A DNA stretch of 64,000 bases from Caenorhabditis elegans (lineage: Eukaryota > Nematoda > Chromadorea > Rhabditida > Rhabditidae): NCBI RefSeq assembly GCF_000002985.6, contig NC_003284.9, positions 1,612,001 through 1,676,000 of the forward strand, written 5' to 3'. The position numbers were made by a program, and so were the translations under genes. Below the pieces are notes generated by a model. That model was not told where the DNA came from. It saw nothing but the letters and a program-made list of their open reading frames with translations, and did not search any database. Shown here piece after piece: positions 26,811-59,856 of this stretch (position 1 is the stretch's first letter; the number at the start of each line of letters is the position of its first letter).

Positions 26811-29756
26811 TCAATACCGGGGAATGTGAAGATCGAGAAAGTGAGAGAATTGGTAAGGAGAGAGGAAAACCGGGACGTTTTTAAAAAGATTATTCCAAAT
26901 GGGAACTGATTGGGCGAAAAAGTGAGCGGTGCAACTGTCCTTTCTAACGAGAATCATAGGGTGCCTATTAGAGCTAGCAAATGAGACAAATTGATTGAGA
27001 CTAGGGAAGTGGGACGATCCAGTGAGGAATCTATAGAGTAGATTCATTTGAGCTTTAATTCTAGTGTGTCTGGTGGAGAAGAGTTTCATTATGCTAAGTC
27101 TATCTTCATAAGAGGAGAATTTAGTATTACATCGTTGCAGAACGCGCTTGGTAAAGTGTCTAAGAGGTTTCTCAAGTTTAGTCGAGAGCAATCAATTAGG
27201 GGAGGGAGAGTAAACCTCAGCGCAGTAATTTATAATTGGAGCCACGTAAGTTTTGAAAAGAAACCCGTAGAAGTTAGGTGAGTTGGAAGAGAATGCTTTT
27301 AGGAGTTGTTTAGCCCGAAGCATGGCTAGGGAACTAACTTTGGCAATGTTGGCCTCAAATTTAAGCTTGGGATCGGTGACAAGACCTAAGTCGCGAACAG
27401 TAGAAGAGGGGATTATGGGAACACCATCAACTGAGTATGAGTGGTTGGTGTTTAGGGAACCCAGAGAAAGGGAAGCAGATTTGGCAGGGGCGAGGGGCAG
27501 CTCATTCTTCTTGGACCAGCTAACAATAGTGTCGATAGATTGTTGGATAATTAAAGGGTTGTGATGGTAGATTTTAATGTCATCCGCAAAACAGGAGACA
27601 TTTATAGAATGTTCAAGATCAATCAGTAAGTCGTTTATGAATAAAATGAAGAGGAGAGGGCCCGAAACGGAACCCTGCGGGACTCCAGAAGAAATGGGGT
27701 AGGTGTTTTTAGATAAAAACTTATTGATTTTTACTGAGAACGTTCTTTGATTAAGGAATTCTTTGAACCAAGAACAAGTGAGGGGGTCTAATCCAAATGA
27801 AGCAAGTTTTTTGAGGAGGATAGAATGGGAGACTTTATCGAACGCCTTGGCAAAATCGAAAAAGATAATGTCAAGTGATTTTTCCTGTCTAATTATAGAG
27901 TGATAGAGAGTAATGGAGCGAACTAGAGAGGAAGGACAGCTTCTAAGTTGTAAGAACCCATGTTGATGGGGGGAAAGTAGATGGGAAAAATCCGTGCGGA
28001 TTCGGGAGCAGATGATGCGTTCCATTACGCGCACAAAGGGGTCCGTCAACGAGATGGGTCTGTAGTTGTGAGGGGATGAGGAATTACCCTTTTTGAGAAT
28101 AGGGATGATTATTGCCTGTTTCCATCGGGCGGGAATAGTAGATTCAGCAAATGATTGATGGAATATTAGAGAAAGAGGCAGTGCGAGCGGGGTGGCGCAT
28201 TTCTTCAGTACTAAGTAATTTGCGCAGTGGGGGGAGAACCCGCATTTGGGTGGGAGTTTAGATAGAACGCTTTCTATTATGTAGGGTTGGAAGGAATCAT
28301 TCCTAATAGAGTTGGTAGTCGAGTTGGAGTTGGTAGAATCAGAATTGCGAGGACTATTGAGAAGCGGGTCAGGAAGCTGGGTGTTTTCAGGGGGGTAGTG
28401 TGAAGCGAACATTTTAGCAAAAATTTCGCTTTTAGCAGAGTCACTAACTATGGTTTTATTGTCAGAGATAAATGCTGGAACAAGGTCTAGCGTTTTGAGG
28501 CGACTATTGATGAGACGCCTAATTTTAGCGTAGTTTGAGCTGGAGACAATTCCGTTTTCAGAACGTCGAAGGGAGTTTTTGTAATTGCGGTACAACTTGC
28601 GGTATTTGGCTTGGGCAATTATAATGGTTTCGGGAGGACAATTCCTAGAGAGAACAAGCTTACTAATCTTTTGACGTAGGCGTTTAAGTTTCCGCAAGGA
28701 ATTTGAAGAAGGAGGGATAGAAGAGGACGGGATCATTGATTTGGTTGGGCAGTATTGAGTTAGGAGGTTCTCTAGAATTGAAAGGAGGTGTTCAAATTTA
28801 TCAGAAACCGAGTTTAGGAAGCTAAATTCGAACTGCCAATTAATGCAAGCCAGGTCTCTATTGAGTGAGGGAAAATCGCATTTTTTATAATCATACAATA
28901 AAGCGTTGCGAGAATTTTGGGAGGAAGAACAACTAGGGATTACAGTAGGAGAGGGAAGTGGGATCTTAAATTCAACAGATAAGTGATCCGAGTTCAGAAG
29001 AGCAGGCTGTGGGGCCAGATCCAGAACAGAGATATCGGAGGAGCAGGCCACTAGGTCTAGAATATTACTGGAGGTGCAAGAAACTCTGGTTGGGAACCGA
29101 ACTCTTTGCGAAAGATCACTTGAGCACAGAAAGGAGGCAAATGGGTGCGACGATGCGTTGGGAGATGACCAATTGATTTGGGGGAAGTTAAAATCGCCTG
29201 TGAGGAGAGTGCGGCTGAGTGGTAAATAATCTTCAAGATGGGCTATTAGAGAGGCGTTTTCAGCTACGGAACAGCAAGGTGGTCTATAAACTAAGAAAAC
29301 CGTAAGTGGGGGAGCAGGAGAATGCGTGTTGAGGATATCAAAGACCAGAATTTCGCAGCGATGCTTGGGATAGTGGGTTTCAAAGTTAATGTTACGAATT
29401 GAAATGTTTAAAGAATTCTTGTACATAATAGCAACTCCGCCACCGGACACCTTAGAATGAAGTTCTGGATTACGGTCTACTCTTACGAAAGAAAATAGGG
29501 GGGAAGCAAAAAGACCAGAAGGTACTGTATTGTTAAGAAAAGTTTCAGTAAGAAAGAGGATATCCAGGTCAGATGAAGTGAAGAATTCTTTGAGCATAAT
29601 TATCTTAGGTAGGACAGCTACACCGCGTACATTTGCAAGAGACATATTGATTGATTTTAGAGTTATGTTATCTAGCGAAGGTATAAAGCTACCGGGGGGC
29701 GAGGAAAATTGCTGAGAGGAAGATAAACGTTCAGAGATATGAGTATCAATTGTCAA
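26811..29756 (-). pseudogene. LINE ORF2: endonuclease and reverse transcriptase, one premature stop
   Basis: The open frame runs 29756-27192 (854 codons), is stopped by TGA at 27192-27194, and continues in the same frame to 26811. An AP-type endonuclease lies at about residues 40-270 with LTETFLNN, LLTGDFNFPQINW and the SDH motif near 257. The RT domain covers about 510-760, with IIPILKKGNSSSPHNYRPIS, DFAKAFDKVSH, GVPQGSVSGPLLF and the catalytic FADD near 725. The post-stop part (EKPLRHFTKRVLQRC...) is the usual C-terminal extension after RT. The first residue given is not necessarily the true start; the stop is the only break I see. Confidence 0.92.
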
Positions 29757-29830
29757 AAAGGTGTAATCAGAAGTTTGAGGAATAGGATTGGAGGGAGGAG
29801 AGAGATAGGAAGAGGAAGAGGATGAATTAT

Positions 29831-30457
29831 CTAACGAGCAGTAGGTGGAGACACGTGAAAAACCCTCGGTTTTGGATTTGAGACGTACCCGATGTCCTTC
29901 ATGATGAAGATAGATTTTCCAGCTTCCTTATTCTGCTCGTACACAAATTTCCTAGATTCACGTAGTTTCGTAAGCTCGTCTTCCATGAGATCGCGGCGAA
30001 GTCGTGGCATAGGGTAAATGGATGTAATGCATCTCTCTTCTTTCTTGATCTTATTGAAGCCTTCATTGAACAAGTCGCGGTCGTTTTCAGATGAGAACTG
30101 GATTTCTAACGGACGGATTTTGGCCTTGCATTGATGACAGTAGCAGTTGGTTGGCATTGGTAAGTTGTATTTCTGAGCGATGTACTGGAGCATTGAGAAG
30201 TTGGAGCGGTCTTGATGAGGGTCATAAATGTTGTCTGGAAGTCTCTCCATAACTGATCTGGTAGACTTACGGATGCATTTCGATGTGAGGGAGGCAAAGT
30301 CCCTCATTTCTTGAGAGGTGGCATGTTTTGGAATAGTAGTAGTAGGGATAGTAGGAGCAGGAAGTACGGAAGCAGTAGTAGAATTGGGAACTGTCGAGCT
30401 GGGTGGGGATTTCCCGATGGAATTGGGAATATCCAATGGATGCGAATTCGCATCCAT
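29831..30457 (-). CDS. LINE ORF1 protein
   Basis: 208 aa on the minus strand, starting MDANSHPLDIPNSIG and ending PPTAR. The first 50 residues are Pro/Thr/Ser-rich. A CYCHQCKAK segment (about residue 110) could be half of a small zinc site, and the C-terminal half is basic and charged (KIKKEERC, RLRRDLMEDELTKLRES). Position upstream of the RT ORF identifies it as ORF1, the nucleic-acid-binding chaperone of the element. It lies 74 bases before ORF2. No clear match to a canonical RRM is visible by eye. Confidence 0.7.
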   Translation of the reverse strand: MDANSHPLDIPNSIGKSPPSSTVPNSTTASVLPAPTIPTTTIPKHATSQEMRDFASLTSKCIRKSTRSVMERLPDNIYDPHQDRSNFSMLQYIAQKYNLPMPTNCYCHQCKAKIRPLEIQFSSENDRDLFNEGFNKIKKEERCITSIYPMPRLRRDLMEDELTKLRESRKFVYEQNKEAGKSIFIMKDIGYVSNPKPRVFHVSPPTAR

Positions 30458-30538
30458 TGGATCGATAATAGGAGAAGGGCAAGAGAGGGGTCACCGTCTT
30501 ACTCAGGTCAAAAGGGGAAGAGTGTCAAAAGGGGGAGA

Positions 30539-45802: not shown

Positions 45803-46551
45803 TTTTGCCACGTGGGCCCACCTGCCAATTTTTAAATTGTTACATTTTGGTATGGAGATATGATTCAGTTCTGAAAGCTTATGGGCAGAGGTTATCGACT
45901 GTAGTCTTTCAGATTTTTATGTTTCCAAATCAATTTTTGTTCTAGGTTAATTATATACTCTATTAAAAATCTCATAAAATGAGGTATTTTGTCAAAATTA
46001 TCAAAACTTCGAGGGAGCGCTATAGAAGTTGCACGGTCGTTTTTGAGACTTTTTAACCTAATTTCCATAGTTTTTGTATTTTTTTGCTATGAAAGTGTTG
46101 GAGAGTGGGCTCTTTTTGACATTTGGAACTGAAAAAAACCTCAAAAAAAACTATTGGAAATTAGTGAAACTCGAAAAAAGATGTATAATGATCCAAAACG
46201 ACAGATTATCATTATAAGACATTACAATATGTTTTTTAGCGTTTTATTATAATATTCGGTCATTTTAGCACCATTAAAATAGTTTTGAACACTTTCCCTA
46301 CTGGTACCACTACATCTTTAATCATGTACAGCCTTTTTTCCGATAAAGTCATTTTTCTAAATTTTGAAAAGACTTTGAACCTTCTATAACTGTTTAGAGC
46401 GGATCGAAAAGTTTTACAAGATTCATGTTTGTTAAAATTTGTTAAATAGGAATGCAAGACAATTACGGAAAGTGAAATAAAAATTGTATTACATAAGTAT
46501 AAAAAGGCATAAATGAAATTTGACACAAAAAAAACCACGCAGGACCTAATA
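45803..46551. other. Repeat-rich region before the membrane-protein gene 3' end
   Basis: It contains the third GGCAGAGGTTATCGAC module (about 45885-45915), a CGCTATAGAAGTTGCACGGT piece related to 34967/35138, and a CACTACATCTTTAAT end resembling foldback termini. No gene is supported. Confidence 0.5.
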
Positions 46552-46990
46552 TCACACAATGACAATGTCATCGATTGCAGGCATTCTCTTGTAGGTTTCT
46601 TCGTCGGGTTTGTACGCTCCTTTTCCGAAAATGGCTGTTGGAAGAATTTTCGGAGCTTTTGAGCATCTCAGAAAACAACACAGGACTGACAGGCACATCA
46701 TGAATAAGACGAAAGACGTGATGCCGGCAAGAAGCCTAAACATTGCGTCTTCTCTTTCATAGTTGCTCAGAGTAAAAATGAACAGACCGTCCGCTTTTGT
46801 GGTTGAGTTAAGGAACATGTCGAAGCTGAAAAAGATTTTAGGGTTTTAAGTCATAGTTCAAATCTGAATTCTAACAGAACTAGTAAGTCTAAATGAAGGT
46901 ACAAGTTAGATTGCCAGTACATTAAACCTGATTCATGTGAATTCGAAGGTCGAGTAAAATCAATTTGAATTTTTTTCAATTCAATTGACA

Positions 46991-46995
46991 GAAAA
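46991..46995. repeat. Target-site duplication, left (GAAAA)
   Basis: GAAAA directly before the left LTR; the same 5 bp directly follow the right LTR at 58408-58412. A 5-bp duplication fits BEL/Pao integration. Confidence 0.85.
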
Positions 46996-47815
46996 TGTGG
47001 AGGCCGTGTAGGATGTATGTAGTCGGTGTCGATCACGTCTCCAGTACCTCGCCCTCTCTCCCCGTGTGTCCCGGTAAACCATCTGAATTATGTGTAAGAA
47101 CGGAATAAGACGAACAAGTGATTACTCAAAAACCTATTTATTATACAACCGCGCCCGTGTGGGTCACGCAGGACTCTAAATAGGATAAAACAAGTAAAAG
47201 GAGGGAAATACATTAAAGAACAATAGAAGATGGTATTAAAGTTCCTTGGTGTTGGTGTAAAAACCCTCTCAATCAATACGAAGGTAATAGTGGGTCAATT
47301 AAGGAAGATATAATTCAAATAGGGTTTAAGATATAATTCTAACGTAGTGGGTATCGCTACACGCTGGGAAAATGAAGCATGTGGATATAGATGGTGTGAT
47401 ATGTTGTGGATGTTGGTATTGATAGAGATTAGAAGTATTTTGATAATAATTACGGCATCAACAACATATCATCAGCATCGTATTTCACCAATTCGTAGAC
47501 AAACAAGTTGTTAACTCGCGGGTGGCGGTGGAATTGGCACGGCGCCAAGTAGTTAGAGACGCAGTGGGTCTCGCCGCGAAGGCGCTACCGTAGGCTGGTG
47601 GCGCGCGATTTGAATACGAATATTTATGAGGTGATTGATATCTCAGCGAATACTGAACGGATTTGAATGGAACAAAATGTAATAAAGAGATAATAATTGT
47701 ACGACACAACAGTACGAATATTGGTTAAGAATAGTGGGCTTTTCAATGGGAAACCGATATTAGAGTACTGTAAAAGGTTGTCGGGATAGCTCCGTAAGGG
47801 GCAGAATCGACAACA
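46996..47815 (-). repeat. 3' LTR of the BEL-type element
   Basis: 820 bp, nearly identical to 57588-58407. Differences seen are near 47743 and 47752 (CTTTTCAATGGG versus CTATTCAATAGG). The purine-rich sequence adjoining it inside (AATGGGAG on the minus strand) is the likely polypurine tract. Confidence 0.93.
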
Positions 47816-48964
47816 CTCCCATTGGGGGGGTCCAGACGAATTTGGGTGATCTTTAGGAACACAAAGAGTCTCAGCTTCTTTCCTTGCACAATTATTATCT
47901 GAAAGTTCTTGAGTCAAGTGGTGACTTCTGTGTGAACAATCATTAGATAGATGGTGTACATAGTTATTTTCAGCCCTTTTTTGACTTTTGTACTCTGCGT
48001 AACAATTGTCGATTTCTGTCTGATTCTGGAACTTATTGGTATCTCTGGTTACATTGTGATTTCTAGACAAACTCTTGCTTTTAGCGTCGTTAGAATTTTT
48101 GGCTACGTGAGCCTCTTTTTTTGAGATTATTGGAGCAATTTTGCTCGGAAGTTGAAATAGAGCGAGTGTTGGTGGTAATGGGGGTGGAGAGGACTTATAG
48201 TCCAGGTCGTCTTCTTCTTCGGTGGGTGGCGTCGGTGCGGAGGTGTCCAAGTGGTTGTCCTTGTCCATGTGGTGTTCTTCGAGTGGGATGAGTAGATCAG
48301 TCCCTCTCACCTTCACCATTTCCGACCATTTTTCACTCGTGCTCTTTGGCAAAATAATTTTGGTAATTTTTCCAAGCTTGCTTACAAAGTCATTGATTTT
48401 ATCGCTTGGTTGCATTTTTGCGGAAATTTGAAATATAGTTTTAATAGTTGACATTGATTTTCGTATTGAATGGGAAGTGATGGTATTACAGTAACCGATG
48501 ATGGCAATTAGCGTTATTTTCAGAACTTTTAAACCGATTCGTTGTGCTGATCCATGATTGATAGTGGATAGATTGGAAACGGAATTAATGTGGTTTATGA
48601 ACACTTTGGTTTTGGTACTGTAATTATCACGTTGACAACTTTGATCATAATGAATAGTATTGATGACGTTGGTATTTTGGTGACTTTGAGATGTATTGAT
48701 ATTATAAGATTTAGAACAAACAATTTGGTTAATAGAACGAATTGAGACAATTTCTGCTGGCAAGACAGTGGGTGGTACGCGAATCTTAATTTTTGATCCC
48801 GTACCTGCCCTGGAAAAAGAGTTATTGGGAGGAAGTGCCTTGCATGCGAGGTTGTTGACGTCGCTGCTCACGAAAAAACTGATTGATTGGTGGTTTGTTC
48901 CACACGATGGCACTGTTTGGGCAATTCTCCACTTTTCGATAGTACTCCTTTCGGGGGCACCCAC
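47816..48964 (-). CDS. Second open frame of the LTR element, overlapping the gag end
   Basis: The frame runs 48964-47624 (446 codons), overlaps the end of gag by 143 nt in the +1 register and continues about 190 nt into the 3' LTR. It begins inside gag, so the first residues are not a true start. A CTCTTTTTCCAG at about 48800-48812 could be a splice acceptor feeding this frame. Content is polar (TPPTEEEDDLDYK, PPPLPPTLALFQLP) with no recognisable enzyme motif. It could be a remnant of a deleted pol or an accessory product; it may not be translated. Confidence 0.35.
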
Positions 48965-50891
48965 CTGAATGGTGTGCTCCAGCGCAATATGTGCATTTTC
49001 GGTTGCTTTTACATTGTTGTGTATGATGGTTTCTCACCAAACAGATTGCACATAGATTTTTGTCTCTGATGGCTTGTCTGAATTGTTTGCTGGTAAATTC
49101 GCATCTCATCGGCTTATGTGGTCCTGAACAAGCAATGCAAAGAACGCCTTTTTCAGGTTGGTTGTATGGGAACGTGTGCTGTAGGAATTGGAAATCTGGA
49201 TTTCCCGCTCCTGGCATATACCAGCCTTCCACCATTTCTCCTGTTTCAGGGATTCTGAATTTTTCCGGAAATCTGGTAGATGTAGCGATCGAATGTTTAA
49301 TCTCGAATTTTTTGTCATAACTTGAAGGATTGTAATACTCTGATTCATATTGATCATTGTTGGGGCTGTGGTGAATAGTAGTGACTGCTCTTCGATCGAG
49401 TTTTGTTCTCGCTTTGATGGTATCGATACAATCGGCTACCATGTCATGAACTTCTTTCCACGTCAATTTTTCGAGACCTTTCTTTGTGGTTTTCGAAAGT
49501 TCATTTTTGATTGATGGCGAGAGTTTGTAGAGAAATGGAACGATGGTTCTTTCATCGTCCACGTTCATGTTTTTCATTTTCAGCTGTCTGACTATAATTC
49601 TGTGCTTTGACAGGTCTTTGATCATTTCCTCCCAGTCATACTGATCGAATGGAAGTTTCAGGAGTGTTTCATGCAGATCGAATCTGTCTTCTTCTCTGCC
49701 AAAGACTATTTCCAGTTCTTTGAGAGATTGGTTAACAGCTTCAGAGAAATTTTCACTTTTCTGTATGAACTCGCTGGCTGGACTAAGAACATGCTGTTTG
49801 AGTAATAGGTATTTTGTCTGACTGCTGAAGTTTCTGTTATTGAGAACATTCTCTTTGAAATTTTCGTGGAAGAATTCGAAATTTTCGTTTTCTTCTCCAC
49901 TGAATTGAATGAGCAATTTATAGACGTTTTTGATATCTGGTTGGATAAATTCTGTTGATTGGTTGTCAGTAGCTCTAGAGTGTTGAGCTTTCTGATTTTC
50001 GCGATTATATAACTCTTTCATGAGTGCGGTATGAGTTTCGTTGTTTGTATCAATTAATGTTGACATTCCAAGAACTAGTTTTTTAATAGCTTCGAGGGTT
50101 TTCTCCTGATCGTCTCTTCCACTTTGAATAATCGATCTTTTCTCAGTTTCGGAGAGATCTTTGGAGACTTTCTCGTTGGCTTTCGATGCTTGTTCAGCTT
50201 TCTTCAAATTCTCATCTTTGAGAGCGAGCTCGGCTTTGAGCTTTTCGACCTCGGCTCTAAGATCGTTCTCGAGATTCGGGATTTCGTTGGTATTATAAAT
50301 CGAAAAAGTTGCAGAATGATAGTTGCTGCTATTTCTCAAACTTTGATCTCGATTTACCTCGAGATCATCGTCCTCAATTTCAGTCAAGACTACGTCTTCG
50401 TCAGGCGGACTGATGATGTAGTTATGAGAGGCCAGCTCCGTTTTGAACATTTCGACGTCTTTTTTGATATTCATCAAGGTCTGATCGACATCAAGACGTT
50501 CGATTTCTTTTTCAGCTTCAGCCTTCATCTCATTCATTTGAGGATGGTTGATGAACTTAGGTAAGTTGAATCGATTTTCGATGTAGCTCGGAACTTTTCC
50601 GATTTTTTGCTCGAGATTCGAGAGTTTGATGATTAGCTGATCGATGTTGATCAGATCGGTTTGTAAGAGTGGGTTGGCAGTATCATCAATTTTATTGAAG
50701 AGATCATTCGATGTTTTGAATAATTTTTCTTTGAGATTGATGATTTTGGTAATCATGGCACGGATTGGCCGGGTGGCCGAATTACGGACCGGTGGTATTG
50801 GATGCGGTGGTATTGGATGCGGTGGTGTCTCATCAGAGACGTTGTTTCGAGTTGGACTCGAAGGTCTTGATTTCGATTTTTCTTCCGACAT
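48822..50891 (-). CDS. Gag polyprotein of the BEL-type LTR element
   Basis: 689 aa from the ATG at 50891 (MSEEKSKSRPSSPTR) to 48822. The N-terminus is Pro-rich, followed by long coiled-coil-like charged segments (about residues 70-310), a capsid-like region, and a C-terminal cluster of Cys/His knuckles at about 585-650: CIACSGPHKPMRCEF, CAICLVRNHHTQQC and CTYCAGAHHSGGC. That arrangement is the signature of BEL/Pao Gag. The frame is uninterrupted, matching the young age suggested by the LTRs. Gag packages element RNA into particles in the cytoplasm. Confidence 0.85.
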   Translation of the reverse strand: MSEEKSKSRPSSPTRNNVSDETPPHPIPPHPIPPVRNSATRPIRAMITKIINLKEKLFKTSNDLFNKIDDTANPLLQTDLINIDQLIIKLSNLEQKIGKVPSYIENRFNLPKFINHPQMNEMKAEAEKEIERLDVDQTLMNIKKDVEMFKTELASHNYIISPPDEDVVLTEIEDDDLEVNRDQSLRNSSNYHSATFSIYNTNEIPNLENDLRAEVEKLKAELALKDENLKKAEQASKANEKVSKDLSETEKRSIIQSGRDDQEKTLEAIKKLVLGMSTLIDTNNETHTALMKELYNRENQKAQHSRATDNQSTEFIQPDIKNVYKLLIQFSGEENENFEFFHENFKENVLNNRNFSSQTKYLLLKQHVLSPASEFIQKSENFSEAVNQSLKELEIVFGREEDRFDLHETLLKLPFDQYDWEEMIKDLSKHRIIVRQLKMKNMNVDDERTIVPFLYKLSPSIKNELSKTTKKGLEKLTWKEVHDMVADCIDTIKARTKLDRRAVTTIHHSPNNDQYESEYYNPSSYDKKFEIKHSIATSTRFPEKFRIPETGEMVEGWYMPGAGNPDFQFLQHTFPYNQPEKGVLCIACSGPHKPMRCEFTSKQFRQAIRDKNLCAICLVRNHHTQQCKSNRKCTYCAGAHHSGGCPRKEYYRKVENCPNSAIVWNKPPINQFFREQRRQQPRMQGTSSQ

Positions 50892-51538
50892 TGTCAGAAG
50901 ATTCAATTAAGATGGTTGTTGTAGTACCCTGCAGAACATATAATTAAGAAATTTATCAATTAGGATAGAATAGGGATGGTATAATCCACGATTCATTGTT
51001 CGTTGGTATTCTAAACAAGGTAAACGAGTTGTTGGAATTGTTGAGATTGTTCTTGGTTTTGATGAGGAATTTGTCTTCTCACTGATGTATTGTCATATAA
51101 TTGCTTTGTTGATTTGGTTAAGGTTTTTACTGAAATTATCAGCGTAGTCTCACAGATGATTTGATCTTATTAATCACCTGATTATTTTTTCTTCCATGTG
51201 ATACTCTTTCGCTTATTTGTCAAGCTCCCTTGACTCGTAATATTTTTGTGTTCAGACTATGTCTCACATTCTGGGGGAATTATTCTATAATAACCAAGGG
51301 ATCGGAGGATTTGACTCGTCCAGATGTGCTCGTTTGAAGCTCGATCTGATCAGCCCGGCTGGAACCCAGCAGAAACATGAAAAAATGTCTTTCCACATTT
51401 CGATTCGTATCACTTCACCAAATATGGATGTTTGTATGTATGTAAATAGATTCGTTCTTGTTACACTGCACTTTATCTCTTGGTACTTGATGGTATTGAA
51501 CTGATCTGAGTATCTGATCACTCCAAGCCTTGAAAGGT

Positions 51539-51620
51539 GACCCAACTTGTGGTGCGCTTTTTCAGCGCAGGCTCAAATTGACTTTAAGGTGGGCTTTTTC
51601 AGCCCAGGCTCAAGCTGTCA
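51539..51620 (-). ncRNA. Structured repeat with two hairpins, copy 1 (LTR element)
   Basis: Contains GCGC-TTTTTCA-GCGC (51554-51568) and GGGC-TTTTTCA-GCCC (51591-51605), two stem-loops with the same loop but different paired stems, each followed by AGGCTCAA. The 80-bp block is repeated at 51981-52063. It lies 650-1,200 nt upstream of gag. A packaging or dimerisation signal is a possibility. Confidence 0.5.
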
Positions 51621-51980
51621 GCTTCTAGACCTTAATCAGAGATCAATTGATACCTTTTGATATCAGTGCCAGTTCTTGATCAGTAAACTGTTGTGTATTT
51701 TACACGTGCATAAACTTCACCTTCCGTGGCTTAGCTTTTTACGCACAGCTGCCACGCCAATATCTATGAACCGTTGCGAGCGGTTAATCATATATGTATT
51801 TTTGTACACATATAATCTTCGACTCAGGCTTGAATTACAGGGAGATCCTCAGGGATTTTTGTTATCCGGAGAATAAATAAACTCAGCCATAACTCATGGA
51901 GATTTCCTGATGTGAACATAGTTAAAAGGAACCCGACCTGATTAGGGATACCGATTTTGCTTATTCCCTTAGCAGAAACG

Positions 51981-52063
51981 TGACTCAATTTGTGGTGCAC
52001 TTTTTCAGCGCAGGCTCAAATTGACTTTAAGGTGGGCTTTTTCAGCCCAGGCTCAAGCTGTCA
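51981..52063 (-). ncRNA. Structured repeat with two hairpins, copy 2 (LTR element)
   Basis: Second copy of the 80-bp block. The first stem reads GCAC-TTTTTCA-GCGC, where a G-T pair replaces G-C on one strand; the second stem GGGC / GCCC is unchanged. The stem is thus largely conserved between copies. Confidence 0.5.
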
Positions 52064-52917
52064 TCGTCCCGGACATTCTCAAGTTTCGTTAAGACGTGTT
52101 CCGTGTTTCTCGTATTTACAAATATATTTGGAGACATTTCATTCCAAGATAAATATTTCCTCCAATGAGAGTATATTTCTGTATAATAGTTACTTTTCAA
52201 TTCGGTTATATAGCGAACATTGTATTTCTTACGATCATTATCTACAGAAGTGATTCATATTATATTCAGATTTTTCAGATTTAATTTTCACGTTGTCCCG
52301 CTTCGACGCAGTGGCTTTGCAAGAGTTCTCAACGAGTATTACTGTAATTTCCGTTTCAGATGGCTCCGCCCTGTTCTAACTTTGCAACGCTTCAATTTTA
52401 CTGAAATCTCTGACTTTTATATCACTAGTGTACTTTTACATTCAGTATTCAATGCTCAGCTATTTCTTTTTATATTCATATAGTAATGGTAATAATTTTC
52501 GACTTTCTTTGTAGATTAATCAATGTTTAATTCAATTCTTTCATGCTTCATCGATAATATCAACGATTCGTTTCTTTTTTCTGACGATTCTTTGAAATTA
52601 TTCAGTAGTTCACAACAGTACACGGTTTTTGATCGAATTCAAGTTTATTTTTAGAGCTTGAAGCCCGATAATTGTCCTATAGGACATACAAACTGTGTAT
52701 CAAGTGGGTGAAAAAATAATAATTTAATTCGTTGGTGATTCTCGATTTATGGCATCTATGGCTCCTCCTCTTTGTTGGTATTATTCAGATCCATCTGATC
52801 TTCCGGAGGTATCAGGACATCCTTCACATCAACTTCGTAGTGGTGTGGGTTTTCTTATGGAATCTGCTGAAATTTGATTGTTATTTCTTGCTTCATCCAT
52901 TTTTGAAAACTACTAAC

Positions 52918-53185
52918 CATTCGACTCCGTTGAATCGGGGCTATTATCTCTGGTTGATCTCGCTTTTGAGCTTCTTCGATGGTTATTTCTTGAGGTGTTT
53001 CGGCTCGTGGCTGAAATTTTGCCATTTTTTGATTGAATTTAATTGATTTTAATAGAAATTTATTTCACTTCGACTGAACTGGATGTACTTACGTTAGTTG
53101 GTATCTCCGTGAATGCTCCGTGAGCTGGCTTGGTACATCTCAATTTCGGTCGGTTTTTACTTTCGCTCGGTGGTTTTTCAGTGTT
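52918..53185 (-). other. Two candidate 93-nt phase-0 exons in the LTR element 5' region
   Basis: On the minus strand, 53185-53093 (NTEKPPSESKNRPKLRCTKP..., after TTTCAG, before GTAAGT) and 53010-52918 (PRAETPQEITIEEAQKRDQP..., after TTTCAG, before GTTAGT) are each exactly 31 codons, phase 0, and open, with an 82-nt intron between them. Neighbouring candidates (53231-53370; 52866 downwards) carry one stop each. The reading is basic and Pro-rich, unlike pol. Confidence 0.4.
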
Positions 53186-54029
53186 CTGAAATGAACAATT
53201 CAGATTTTGCAACTTATTTTATCATTTTTTACCTTTCATCTTGAATGCGAATTGCATTTCGTTGGTATTTGATTCGATTTTTTCGGAGTCGATCTCGTGG
53301 ATGATTCGGAGGTATTTAGAAGTTTGTTGCCAATGTTGTTCGAATTGTGCTCATGATTTTACATGTTTGGCTGAAAAATGAAAATATTTTCATTATTTTC
53401 GAATTTTTGGCACGTTTCAATGTTCATTATTAAGATTAGGATTTCAAGCGAAGAGAAAGCCGTTTTTGTACTTCGGAGTGACAAGTTTTTTGAAATTTTG
53501 TCCCTTTTCATTAACGATTTTCGATGATTGTAGAGTAGGGTGTCACTCTATTGATTCTATTTGAATATGTTCTGTTTGAATTGAATGTTTATACTGTTTT
53601 TACAGAATGGTTCTCATTATTAAGGAAAAAGATTATAAATTCTGCAAAAGTCATTCCAAATCGAGATTTCAATTTTTATATTTCGAATTTATGCGCATTA
53701 TTGCTCGCCGAACCAAATTCCAACTTCTCATCAAACGCCAATTCGATGATGAAGCCGAAAGCTGGATCTGTCAACTGAATTTGTATTCTGATTTTTCGCG
53801 GTCAACTGCCCTCAACTGTTAATAATTCAGAAAAATATAATGTTTTATTCAGTTTTCCAGATAAATTTTTCAGATTGGCGTCCTAATACTCGGTTTGCGA
53901 ATTATATTCACTCCTTCGAGCTAGTATTATATTCGGCTCAATTATTGAATAACTTTTTTGGAATTCATATTCCCGCGTGGACTAAACGCGTTTTATCTTA
54001 CTAACCTTGTGAATTATGCGTCAGTTCTC

Positions 54030-54095
54030 CCATTAGGGGGGGGGGGGGGGGGGGGTCATTTCTCATTTCCCGATGTACTCCCATTAGGGGGGGTC
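54030..54095. repeat. G-run with internal polypurine-tract-like copies
   Basis: CTCCCATTAGGGGGG (with a run of about 20 G) and a second CTCCCATTAGGGGGGGTCAT at 54076-54095 resemble the sequence next to the 3' LTR (CTCCCATTGGGGGGGTCC at 47816-47833). On the element's sense strand these read CCCCCC(T)AATGGGAG. They may be central polypurine tracts or traces of recombination. Confidence 0.5.
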
Positions 54096-54947
54096 ATTTC
54101 GATGGTTAAATGATTTTTATAAAGATGTGTGTGAAGCGTGATCCTAAAAATCTCATTCGGATGTTTCTAGGCGGCTTTTGGTTGGTATATCATATTAACT
54201 AACGCACGATTCACCTTCTTTGGTGTAATTGGGAAATCCCGCAATTCCTAGCTTTTGATAGGATGCTTGTTTGTAAACCTAATATTTATTAGGTGGGCCT
54301 GTGATTTTCCGACAGTTCGATTGACTGATCGGGGGCCTTTTCTGGATTACGTCAATGACGGGTTTTCCGGATTTCATTTGAATACAGCGGAATTTGAATT
54401 GATCGTTTCGGGATACACCGTTATTGACGAGGGATTTTCCCAATTCATATATCATGGCATCTTCTCCAGTTGATTAGTTCTGTCAGTTAGCTAATCAACC
54501 CGTATACAAACGATGGCTCGGACAGAATACAGAAATAGTAGAATGAAACGGCAGTAACGGGTTTCCCGCGCAATAGTGGTTCACGAATGATGGAAATCAT
54601 TTTTGATGATGGAAATCATCTTTGTACGAATGATGGAAATCATTTTTGTAGTTATATTTCTTCGCTTTGCGGGGGTATTCTTAACTATTTTGAGCCTATA
54701 CGTGGGTAAAGATACTCATTATCGCAATTATATCGAAAATTATTTCATTTGAATTTTTTATAGAATTTTGAACGGTTTCTCTCAACTCTCAACCTCATTT
54801 CAGAATAACTTCGAACACTGAATCGTGAATTAAAGACAGAGGGGTGAATGTGTTACGATAGTCGGTATGAGATATGTTACTCCATCTGATAATCAATAAT
54901 TCATTCAAAGGCTATTCGTTTGTCAATAATTATTTATTAAAATTCAA

Positions 54948-56400
54948 TCAATTGTGAGATACGTTGGTATTAATTAGCAAACGTTGGTGGTATGAAGAGT
55001 TGGTTTCGTGGAGATGTAGCTTGGGGGTGCTTAGGATTGGCGACCTCCTCAATTCGATCTGGTACTCTTCGGCATGAATCGCTCCTTTTCGGTCTGAATT
55101 CAATATTGTTTTCAATAATCTTTCGTAATATTCGATACTCACCGGAGACTCGAAGGTTTCGTGCTCTTTAGAAGCATGCTCGCGGACTTCTGTGTGATGG
55201 TTGGGCTTTTCTCTCCATGATGAGGGATTGATGAGCCAGTTGATCTCCAGAAGCGAATGAGTTCTGAATATTGATTTTTTAATTGGATTATTGATTTTTC
55301 GCTAATTATTACCTCGATATCTTCGTTGGTAATTCCTATTGCATTAGTCGGTGGGTTCGTAATTTTTCGGTCTTTCCCGTCGGTTTCCTGTTGGTCTCTC
55401 TCCTGGTAACTCGAGTTTTGCTGGAGTGCAGCTTCAATTCGTGGTACGATGGCTGAGAGTTGGTACTAATGTCGACGGGTCGTGTTGATTTGCGTTTGGA
55501 TTTTCCGACTTCTACAATAATTTTTATTGATTGATTTTTACTTATTAAGATCTCATTAATAAATATTTACCTTTATTCGTCTCTTTCATAAAGTTGGTAA
55601 TCTCGAGCAAGTTGTCCTCTAGCGGATGATCTTCTAATTTCCCGTTGGTATTCTTGGGGGTTTTGACGGCTCTTGGAGGCAATTTCTCCGAAGCTGGTGT
55701 CTTTCCTGGAGTAGTCTCGAGGTTTGAGTCCTGCTCATCGGAGTTCTCGGCAGAATGGCCGTCTGATTTGATTGGTGAAGATTGATCAACTTGGATGTCC
55801 TTGACGGAGCTCAACTGGAAGAATAATTCGATTTAGCTTGTAATATTTGAATAAGAATATTAAATTAATCGATCGAAATTTAAAAGTGTCCAACCAGTGA
55901 GAGGAAAATGGATAGAATTCAAGATATTTTTTGGTAAACATTCAATTAATGAGTATTTCAACAATTTGGGGATCGAGGATATACCTTCAGAGCTTTTAGG
56001 TAGTGTTCGGCGGGTATTTCTGGCAGTTTGGAGGTTCCTTCCAGCTGGTTGGTTCCTTTATCAATCGATAAGGTTGCCATCACGTTGTGTCGAGCAACTT
56101 CGATTTCTGCGTGTGCCGCGTCTCTCTAGCATTTCGTCGGTGAATATTTGGTCTGAAAAAATCGATAGTTATGATTATTTCTCAAATAATTTCGACCATA
56201 CCTGCTCGTGGGTATTTTTCCTCATCTAAATTCGCCTCGAGGATGGTATTATCATTGGAAAGTTCTTTCGTGGGTACTTCTGCTTGGAGCTGGTGTTTCT
56301 CATCCTCCGCTTGGTGGTAATATTGATGTCCAGCTGTTTGAGTTGGTTTGGCTCTTCATAATGATGGTATTCTGATCGGCCTTTCCTCGATTTTCTGGAA
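54948..56400 (-). other. Further exon-like segments in the LTR element 5' region
   Basis: Minus-strand segments with consensus splice edges: about 56394-56196, 56152-55988, 55814-55571 (LSSVKDIQVDQSSPIKSDGH..., fully open) and 55262-54948 (THSLLEINWLINPSSW... to ...NTNVSHN, stop). The two upstream segments show the same polar peptide style but need a frame change to stay open. They may be a spliced accessory gene, captured host exons, or decayed pol. No enzyme motif is visible. Confidence 0.35.
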
Positions 56401-57569
56401 TCAAATATTAATTATTATTGATATTGAGGGCGATTAGAAGGTTTAGTATTGTTGAAATATTAATAAAATTGACTTTTGAGGTGACTTGCAGATTTTCGAA
56501 AAGTTTCGAAATGTTTCGAAATTCGTTTTTCTCGGATTTTTCCAAATTTTTCGGAGAATTTCAAGTAATTTTGATGTTAAATTACAGGGCCACGCGTATT
56601 CTCGCTTAGAAATGTTCGAAATAATTCAAGAAATGGGAAAAATCAAAAATTATAACGAAAAATCTTAAAATTTTAGGTAAAATCGAATTTCTTGTCGATT
56701 TTTTCGAGATTTCTACGAAATTTCTGCATAAATTTTATGAATATTTCATATAAAACTCACTTTTTGACATTTGGAGTCGAAATCCGTGCTGGAATATGTA
56801 GTTCTGACGACAATAATGGCTCTTGGCCTAAAAAAGTTAAAAAATTTTTTTTCATTTGAATTGGTGGGCGGAGCGAAGTGTACGCATACACCTCACGTCA
56901 GAATGCACAGAATCGTCTACCGTAGTCACGCGAATACAACGAATTTAATCGGGGTTCAGTGGATTTTTTACGGGAATTTTACACGATATTCATGAAATTT
57001 TTGTGAGAATTGATGAGAAAAATATTTATCTTCATATTTTTCAAGCAGATAGTCGATATTTAGGCTTTTTGCCTGATCTTCATAGCGATACAGCTCGATT
57101 TGGCGAATTTTTCACGAAATCATCGATTTTTTCTGGATTTTTAGGTTCGATTGAGGGTTTTTACGAAGTCTTCGGAATATTTCCTCGTTCGGATCAGCTG
57201 AGGATACACTCGATATAGAATACTTGATTTTTTGAGAGTAATTGTTCGAATTCCGGCGATTTCCTGGCACAGCGGAGAGGGAGAGTTCGGTCCGACAGGT
57301 TCTTTTTGAATCGAGGAGAGTTTTAGGTTAAATCTTCCGTTCATTATCGATTTTTATGCGCTTTTGATATGAATTTTGAAATAGAAATTGATTTTTAATT
57401 GATTTTTTAGGTAAAAATTGGAATTTTGATAGAGTTTTTGGAAAAAATGGAAATTTGAAGAGAGATTTTGGTAGAAAAATGGGTATTTTTGTATTTTTTG
57501 AGTGAAATTTTTTGCATTTTAAATCGATAATTTGAAAGAAAGACTACCTTTTACTCGTTCCTGATTCTC

Positions 57570-57587
57570 CATGAGGTCGATGCACCA
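57570..57587 (-). promoter_or_regulatory. Primer-binding site of the LTR element
   Basis: Directly inside the 5' LTR on the minus strand: TGGTGCATCG, 10 nt complementary to the 3' end of a typical tRNA-Gly including CCA. Confidence 0.7.
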
Positions 57588-58407
57588 TGTGGAGGCCGTG
57601 TAGGATGTATGTAGTCGGTGTCGATCACGTCTCCAGTACCTCGCCCTCTCTCCCCGTGTGTCCCGGTAAACCATCTGAATTATGTGTAAGAACGGAATAA
57701 GACGAACAAGTGATTACTCAAAAACCTATTTATTATACAACCGCGCCCGTGTGGGTCACGCAGGACTCTAAATAGGATAAAACAAGTAAAAGGAGGGAAA
57801 TACATTAAAGAACAATAGAAGATGGTATTAAAGTTCCTTGGTGTTGGTGTAAAAACCCTCTCAATCAATACGAAGGTAATAGTGGGTCAATTAAGGAAGA
57901 TATAATTCAAATAGGGTTTAAGATATAATTCTAACGTAGTGGGTATCGCTACACGCTGGGAAAATGAAGCATGTGGATATAGATGGTGTGATATGTTGTG
58001 GATGTTGGTATTGATAGAGATTAGAAGTATTTTGATAATAATTACGGCATCAACAACATATCATCAGCATCGTATTTCACCAATTCGTAGACAAACAAGT
58101 TGTTAACTCGCGGGTGGCGGTGGAATTGGCACGGCGCCAAGTAGTTAGAGACGCAGTGGGTCTCGCCGCGAAGGCGCTACCGTAGGCTGGTGGCGCGCGA
58201 TTTGAATACGAATATTTATGAGGTGATTGATATCTCAGCGAATACTGAACGGATTTGAATGGAACAAAATGTAATAAAGAGATAATAATTGTACGACACA
58301 ACAGTACGAATATTGGTTAAGAATAGTGGGCTATTCAATAGGAAACCGATATTAGAGTACTGTAAAAGGTTGTCGGGATAGCTCCGTAAGGGGCAGAATC
58401 GACAACA
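57588..58407 (-). repeat. 5' LTR of the BEL-type element
   Basis: 820 bp beginning TG and ending CA, with the GAAAA target duplication following at 58408-58412. It should contain the element's promoter. Nearly identical to 46996-47815. Confidence 0.93.
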
Positions 58408-59856
58408 GAAAATGAAGGAATAGAATTTTAAATAAATTATGAAAATTTTCAAAATAGTTTCAAAAGAAAATTCCTGCGCCAACTAGTGACGTCATTTTTG
58501 ATATTTTTGTGATTCTTAGTATTGGTATCTATTGATTGTTCTTCTTTGTTTAATTTGAAAGACAGTTGGTGAAATTTTCAAATATTTTTCGCACAAAAAC
58601 AATTATATGTACATACATAAATATTAAACTGTTGATTTGTAAGTATATTTTCAAATTTCCGCAAATTTCTTCCGGGTTATCAAGTTTTCTTCAAGGAAAA
58701 AAGTTTGAGAATTAAAAAAAAACAGGTGTTTCAAATTGAGAAAAACGCGAAAATTCCAAAAATGACGGCACTCATTTGTACGGGAGTTCAAAACTTATTT
58801 GCCCTTTTTTTGTTTTTGCAGAAATTAAAAAAAAAGGAAATTTTTTGAAACTTCTAGTATAAATTTTGGGAAATTGGCAAATTTTTAAATCATTTCAGCT
58901 TCAAAGAAAATTCAGAGCAAAATTGTTTTGGTCGATTTATAAAATTATGAGCGGCAAAAACTAAGTACTTGTCACTTTTTTAGATTAAACTTTCAAAAAT
59001 TTTTGTAAAAGTTTTACTATCATATTCGGTAATTTTGGCACAAGTTGAGTAGTTTCGCTGCTCTATGTACCTTTGAATTTTTTTCAATAGTAGTAAATTT
59101 TAAATTTCAGCTATAGCTGTCAGTGAACCAACCTGTTGTTTGTGAGCCTACTGGAGCAGATCATGCTTCAATCTATTCAGCTCTCCCAGAATTTGCCTGT
59201 CAATAATCACGGTCTCTTTTTTTTTCACCACCAAGACTCCTTCAATCATGAATCCGCATTTCCTAAAGCGAATCGTGCAATCGGATGGATACTTCGATGT
59301 CAGCAGTACTTGGTTGGTACCGTTTGAAGCGATGGCTGAAAAAGTCACAATTTACAGTAAATTAACAGAATGCTGGAAACTTACCTTCCGTGATTAATGA
59401 ATTAATTGCAACTGGGTACTTATTCACGTTTTCCGGAAAATCTTTTTTGACCCAAATAATTGTAATATTTTCTTGAGTCTCAGGAATTTCAACCGCAGGA
59501 CCAGTCATTGATGTCAAAGATCCGTAGGAGCCTCTTGGAAAGTGTGCTTTGACAAACAAGCTGAAAAAATTGATTATCACACTGTTACTTTTCTTTTTGA
59601 CTCACTTATACTCAGAAAATCTGCAGAGATGATGGGAAAGATTCAGGAGATGTTCCAGGTAAGGACCGCTGAGCTGGATGGAGAAGTTGCCAACTGGTTT
59701 GTCCGTTCTGAGCAGCATTTTGGTGCAATACTTAAATTCCAGCTGCATAGGTTCGGTTGATTGGAAAGTCAGGATTGCAGTTTTCTTTTGTCTGTGAGCT
59801 GCAATATATCAACAATAAGCTTTAAACTTTTGAAATTTCAGATACAGTCACAGGAT

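What the first reader, a model, noticed from the sequence alone, without database searches (positions are those of the whole stretch)
46996..58407. Young 11.4-kb BEL-type LTR element with intact gag but no detectable pol
The LTRs are nearly identical, the target duplication is intact and gag is open, yet none of the six frames shows RT, RNase H, protease or integrase motifs in more than 11 kb. This resembles the terminal-repeat-plus-gag class of non-autonomous elements described in plants. The large 5' region with exon-like segments is unusual for any worm Cer element I know of.
Basis: partly seen in the sequence, partly recalled or inferred. Interest (0 to 1): 0.78.

Follow-up and report, generated by a model that had tools for sequence, protein, structure and literature searches.

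The report
Worm retroelement that kept only gag
On the C. elegans X chromosome sits a recently inserted retrovirus-like jumping element that has lost its copying enzymes and an extra upstream gene but kept an open capsid gene, so it was most likely moved by enzymes borrowed from a relative.

Summary
The element is real: 820-bp LTRs 46996-47815 and 57588-58407 (2 mismatches), GAAAA duplication, tRNA-Gly(GCC) primer site, open 694-codon gag on the minus strand. The genome matches C. elegans N2 by size.

"No detectable pol" is nearly right. No RT, RNase H or integrase core was found. A +1-frame remnant follows gag: protease without its catalytic aspartate, a short island, the integrase-side tail.

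The 6.7-kb 5' region is not unique. Relatives on II and V carry there a predicted six-exon gene (478 residues in V) for a zinc-knuckle protein; their places match F15D4.5 and C38D9.2, which the literature calls nucleocapsid-like retrotransposon genes. In X this gene is dead.

X-branch omega is 0.22 for gag and 0.80 for the upstream gene. That decay far exceeds the 0.24% LTR divergence, so it preceded the last insertion. X and the V copy both lack the RT core and are closest in the tail just downstream. I infer a gag-retaining lineage mobilised in trans. Recombination and a late pol loss are not excluded: the island evidence is weak. Only one such body was found, so a plant-type multicopy gag-only family is not shown.

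The parts
57588..58407 (-). 5' LTR (820 bp, TG..CA)
46996..47815 (-). 3' LTR (820 bp; 2 mismatches to the 5' LTR)
58408..58412 (.). target-site duplication GAAAA
46991..46995 (.). target-site duplication GAAAA
57575..57587 (-). primer-binding site TGGTGCATCGACC, complementary to the 3' end of tRNA-Gly(GCC) plus CCA
55049..56359 (-). eroded upstream gene (ORF0), positions homologous to exons A 56359-56202, B 56152-55985, C 55814-55571, D 55511-55313, E 55263-55143, F 55093-55049; GT/AG sites still present; 5-nt and 11-nt deletions in A and B; most of the knuckle and coiled-coil coding parts missing in D and E
51532..52068 (-). two 94-nt direct copies (94% alike), each with two stem-loops sharing the loop TGAAAAA; 581 nt around them fold better than all 100 shuffles (z -4.26)
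50929..51011 (-). two candidate 3' splice sites (exon starts 51010 and 50928) aligned in X, V and II upstream of the gag ATG
48822..50891 (-). gag from first ATG to stop (open frame 50906-48825); zinc knuckles near the C-terminus
47627..49033 (-). pol remnant frame, +1 relative to gag: protease remnant about 48820-48464 without the catalytic Asp, 58-nt island 48463-48406, integrase-side (DUF5641-side) and proline-rich tail 48406-47816, frame open on into the LTR

Best explanation
This is a young, non-autonomous BEL/Pao LTR retrotransposon of C. elegans. Its lineage lost a spliced upstream zinc-knuckle gene (ORF0) and most of pol but kept gag under selection. Its RNA would start in the 5' LTR (58407) and be primed by tRNA-Gly(GCC). 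Gag would be translated from RNA spliced or trans-spliced to an acceptor just upstream of gag, because the leader is 6.7 kb with 93 ATGs. Gag would package the unspliced RNA, and protease, reverse transcriptase and integrase would come from a related element. Shown: anatomy, losses, selection on gag over its branch, ORF0 decay older than the insertion. Inferred: splicing, packaging, mobilisation in trans, and a pol loss older than the insertion.
For: LTR pair with 2 mismatches of 820 and intact duplication. No RT/RH/INT core hit below E 0.17 in the window, while the same queries hit the other relatives' loci strongly. Omega on the X branch: gag 0.22 (300 bootstraps, 0.16-0.30; 652 codons) against ORF0 0.80 (0.50-1.30; 282 gap-free codons of about 464 in exons A-E). 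Post-insertion change predicts about 1 substitution in those 846 nt, whereas X-V dN in them is 0.36, so ORF0 decayed before the last insertion. X and V both lack the RT core and A17 region that II has. In the 3' tail beside the scar X and V are closest: 343 of 386 identical, against 294 of 380 for X-II and 301 of 383 for V-II; 60 X=V sites, 22 V=II, 17 X=II. X's 58-nt island aligns best, within pol, at V L012:3817-3856 and at the homologous II L010:5330-5379. A solo LTR of the same 820-bp type at II:7.47 Mb (96.6%) with a 5-bp duplication shows earlier movement of this LTR type.
Against: One body only. The island match is weak: 76 of 1000 (V) and 118 of 1000 (II) query shuffles score as well, and two control targets score higher than either (X's own interior 17.1, V upstream plus gag 18.4, against 15.0); with 86 nt, V beats all 50 target shuffles but II does not. 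X is a mosaic: dS to V is 0.25-0.43 in ORF0 exons A-C, above 1 in exons D-E and in gag, 0.43 in the protease part and 0.25 in the tail, so its parts may have different histories, and V and II, not X and V, are closest in gag. The protease remnant shows no clear relaxation (X-V omega 0.48, 0.26-0.91; V-II 0.55), so pol may have been lost later than ORF0. No helper was identified: II has pol in shifted frames and lacks the LTR/leader stretch that holds the PBS in X; other BEL families with long open pol frames exist but were not tested as helpers.
Confidence: 0.55

Rival explanations
1. Ordinary element that lost pol in or shortly before its last reverse-transcription cycle, or after insertion; gag is open simply because the copy is young.
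For: Only one body found; gag expects only about 2.5 post-insertion substitutions; protease remnant not clearly relaxed; the pol remnant frame is still open; the island that would tie X's scar to V's is weak.
Against: ORF0 was already non-functional before insertion; X and V both lack the RT core and share the closest tail; the protease deletion is a lesion separate from the large one.
Confidence: 0.28
2. Recombinant copy: template switching joined long-dead 5' and 3' parts to a gag from an active lineage, so the selection seen on gag does not belong to a non-autonomous lineage.
For: Synonymous divergence from V changes about five-fold along the element; V and II are closest in gag, X and V in the tail.
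Against: Exons D and E of ORF0 lie in the same divergent block as gag and are largely deleted, so the block that carries selected gag also carries dead ORF0.
Confidence: 0.13
3. The gag has been taken over by the host and is kept for a host function.
For: Purifying selection on gag.
Against: LTRs nearly identical and duplication intact, so too young; omega of gag is similar on the V and II branches (0.20 and 0.33).
Confidence: 0.02

Closest known systems
II:13.245-13.260 Mb relative (place matches F15D4.5/F15D4.6 in PMC4367959 Table 1)
   Same: LTR type, ORF0 exons, gag (54% and 63% identical in two pieces), pol frame +1 to gag
   Different: keeps protease, RVT_1, Peptidase_A17 and H2C2 matches over the curated cut-offs and rve and DUF5641 below them, in three successive frames that are not in register; lacks the LTR/leader stretch holding the PBS in X
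V:17.568-17.581 Mb relative (place matches C38D9.2)
   Same: ORF0 exons, gag (59% and 66%), also without RT core, closest 3' tail
   Different: ORF0 frame and protease motif kept; 799-codon pol frame; 3' LTR broken off after about 17 nt
Cer8/Cer9-type BEL elements (sdg-1 lies in Cer9, PMC11793870 passages)
   Same: coding frames upstream of gag, BEL gag
   Different: other upstream genes; pol present at several such places
Plant TR-GAG elements (recalled; search listing only)
   Same: LTR pair, gag, no pol, presumed help in trans
   Different: plant families are (recalled) multicopy and short; here one 11.4-kb BEL copy in an animal, with pol and ORF0 remnants
Cer1 and its CERV protein (PMC10309623 passages)
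   Same: spliced accessory gene within a worm LTR element
   Different: Cer1 is Ty3/gypsy; [quoted passage not shown] homology to ORF0 not tested

Membership tests
BEL/Pao superfamily | LTRs TG..CA with 5-bp target duplication | tested here: met
BEL/Pao superfamily | Pao/BEL-type gag (DUF1759) | tested here: inconclusive
   X gag has no DUF1759 hit at E<=1; its homologues hit below the curated cut-off (0.0021 and 0.00011) and X gag is 54-66% identical to them
BEL/Pao superfamily | pol order PR-RT-RH(A17)-INT | tested here: not met
   absent in X; seen, in frames out of register, in the II relative. X is filed as a defective derivative by descent
TR-GAG-like non-autonomous elements | LTRs, PBS, open gag, no RT or integrase | tested here: met
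TR-GAG-like non-autonomous elements | several copies sharing the same pol-less structure | tested here: not met
   one body of X type found (counts are lower bounds); the V copy shares the RT-core loss but keeps more of pol
TR-GAG-like non-autonomous elements | mobilised by another element's Pol | not testable with these tools
   inferred from order of events only

The most novel reading that the evidence does not exclude
C. elegans BEL elements live as a set of complementing partners: autonomous members, a long-lived lineage that has lost RT and later ORF0 but keeps gag under selection (V:17.57 then X:1.66), and LTR-flanked elements in which only upstream genes and no gag or pol were found (X:16.83 Mb, LTRs 99.4%; V:20.30 Mb, LTRs 100%). 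Gag-only mobility would then be an old, selected strategy in an animal rather than an accident.
Probability: 0.28. Interest if true: 0.72.

Novelty: new variant of a known kind. Interest (0 to 1): 0.46.

Why it matters
If right, an animal BEL lineage has lived without its own polymerase while selection kept its gag, which makes trans-mobilisation of gag-only elements testable in a model organism with many sequenced wild strains (recalled). It also places two nuclear-RNAi target genes, C38D9.2 and F15D4.5 (by map position), as the upstream gene of one LTR-element family, so the decay of that gene in X, whose lineage still moved, bears on whether the gene is needed in cis.

Tried and rejected
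PDB sequence search of gag: nothing up to E 1. Rfam at gathering threshold on 46000-59000: no match. Retrotransposition of a spliced RNA as the cause of the pol deletion: looked at by eye at the junction, no support seen, not tested further. Host exon capture in the 5' region: rejected, because the segments are conserved element exons. Papers: search listings; passages only of PMC10309623, PMC1858694, PMC4367959, PMC11717427, PMC11236994, PMC3118150, PMC11793870, PMC11309393. Fischer & Ruvkun 2020 (PMC7084138) and Ganko 2001 (PMC311226) are not held, so I cannot say that this X copy is undescribed. Other strains and other Caenorhabditis species could not be searched.
Full report
Place. The window is X:1612001-1676000 (contig C6) of a 100,286,401-base, 7-contig genome; this size and the contig lengths agree with C. 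elegans N2 as I recall it. No call names the organism; the match of two relatives to gene places in PMC4367959 (WS190 coordinates) supports it.

Element. The two LTRs are 820 bp with 2 mismatches, within GAAAA duplications. The coding sense is minus, so 57588-58407 is the 5' LTR. The primer site TGGTGCATCGACC (57587-57575) matches the 3' end of tRNA-Gly(GCC): the composed 22-base pattern has 17 places with up to 2 mismatches, 15 of them exact, control 0, and the two places that I fetched are tRNA-Gly(gcc) by ARAGORN.

Coding content. gag is open (50906-48825, 694 codons). A +1 frame (49033-47627) overlaps its end and holds a pol remnant: similarity to the II pol frame from 48856 to 48467, then from 48406 to the V pol tail. 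In II and V the protease motif is DSG; in X an in-frame deletion has removed the stretch with the aspartate. Relative to II about 3.7 kb with RVT_1, A17 and integrase core is missing. Between the two parts lies a 58-nt island. Within pol its best alignments to V (L012:3817-3856) and to II (L010:5330-5379) fall at homologous places just after V's own RT deletion, and by eye the translations resume at about the same codon. The nucleotide evidence is weak: 76 of 1000 and 118 of 1000 shuffles do as well, and two control targets outside this region score higher.

Relatives. The gag search (34 pieces) gives two close relatives, II:13.25 Mb and V:17.577 Mb. The II copy keeps pol domain matches in three frames that are out of register. 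The V copy has gag, a protease motif and a 799-codon frame without RT or integrase core; its 3' LTR stops after about 17 nt, where a 1344-nt inverted-repeat arm begins. The LTR search listed 28 pieces. I examined ten further LTR loci: seven span the LTR end to end, three are partial. In six of the seven (II:7.47, IV:8.32, V:6.59, IV:16.35, V:16.46, III:8.94 Mb) I read matching 5-bp flanks; the seventh, IV:16.89 Mb, keeps about 0.8 kb of internal sequence. Smaller pieces at IV:15.31, X:12.56 and V:20.16 Mb were not examined.

Upstream gene. In V and II six predicted exons with GT..AG introns and consistent phases lie between LTR and gag; in V they sum to 1437 nt, 478 codons plus stop. V-II gap runs inside them (15, 12, 12, 18, 3) are multiples of three. 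The predicted protein has a helical region (by eye) and a triple zinc-knuckle module. X keeps the splice sites but has 5-nt and 11-nt gaps in exons A and B and lacks 307 and 182 nt in D and E. The same knuckle module occurs upstream of a different BEL gag at V:19.28 Mb, in two LTR-flanked elements (X:16.83, V:20.30 Mb), and alone at X:13.60 Mb. Of the 13 other gag loci whose upstream side I listed, one (III:13.24 Mb) matches the module profile clearly (1.1e-9) and two (I:11.44 and X:17.71 Mb) weakly (0.05, 0.16); Cer8/Cer9-type loci carry other upstream frames. PMC4367959 lists the two ORF0 regions as hrde-1 silencing clusters, II with no LTR element and V with a 68-bp Cer8-1 fragment (passages). 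PMC11717427 says F15D4.5 and C38D9.2 have been proposed as nucleocapsid-like proteins of genes within retrotransposons (passage). I tie ORF0 to these genes by map position only. So this kind of gene is known; what I add is its place upstream of gag, a predicted exon structure and its loss in X.

Selection and order of events. Nei-Gojobori estimates on three sequences: gag X-branch omega 0.22 (0.16-0.30); ORF0 X-branch 0.80 (0.50-1.30); V-II 0.26 for gag and 0.45 for ORF0. Codons with a gap in any sequence, codons split by introns and exon F (15 codons) were left out of the pooled ORF0 figure. By single exon the X-branch values range from 0.14 (F, 15 codons) to 1.72 (A) with wide intervals; D and E are 0.44 each. 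In gag codons 521-694 synonymous change is saturated and only 64 and 46 of 300 resamples were usable. The protease remnant (X-V 0.48, 0.26-0.91) is intermediate and the tail (X-V 0.89, 0.59-1.38) near neutral. With three sequences the X branch is unrooted and includes time before any loss. LTR divergence predicts about 12 substitutions in the whole interior since insertion and about 1 in the ORF0 codons used, far below the divergence of ORF0. Therefore ORF0 was lost before the last insertion. For pol this is not shown so directly; it rests on the RT core missing also in V, the weak island, and the closeness of X and V in the tail.

Mosaic. X-V synonymous divergence is low at both ends and high in the middle. 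Recombination has therefore acted, and I hold my confidence down for it.

Gag expression. The leader is 6696 nt with 93 ATGs, and two acceptor-like sites upstream of gag align in the three copies. I infer that gag is made from spliced or trans-spliced RNA; no transcript data were available.

Noticed in passing
G000 X:16827419-16838863 (L042/L026/L043) and V:20299713-20310135 (L045/L028/L044): Two LTR-flanked elements (99.4% over 537 bp and 100% over 529 bp) that carry upstream-type zinc-knuckle genes related to frames of Cer8/Cer9-type loci. No gag or pol match was found with this family's and V:19.27's proteins, the A17 family or Pfam on eight of their frames.
   Followed up: partly
window 51532-51625 and 51975-52068: Duplicated 94-nt unit with paired stem-loops that share the loop TGAAAAA in the element's sense strand. 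No such stem-loop inside the V or II copies (one hit lies outside the V element). Possibly an RNA signal.
   Followed up: partly
window 27192-30490, minus strand: 911-codon frame with endonuclease- and reverse-transcriptase-like sequence (by eye, a non-LTR retrotransposon) next to a 219-codon frame; strong GC skew there.
   Followed up: no
L027:2385-3392 (X:13.600-13.601 Mb): Stand-alone run of frames with the same triple zinc-knuckle module; no LTR-like pair more than 3 kb apart found in the 23 kb around it.
   Followed up: partly
L012:4767-8549 (V:17.581-17.585 Mb): A 1344-nt inverted-repeat pair, 100% complementary, begins about 17 nt into the V copy's 3' LTR.
   Followed up: no
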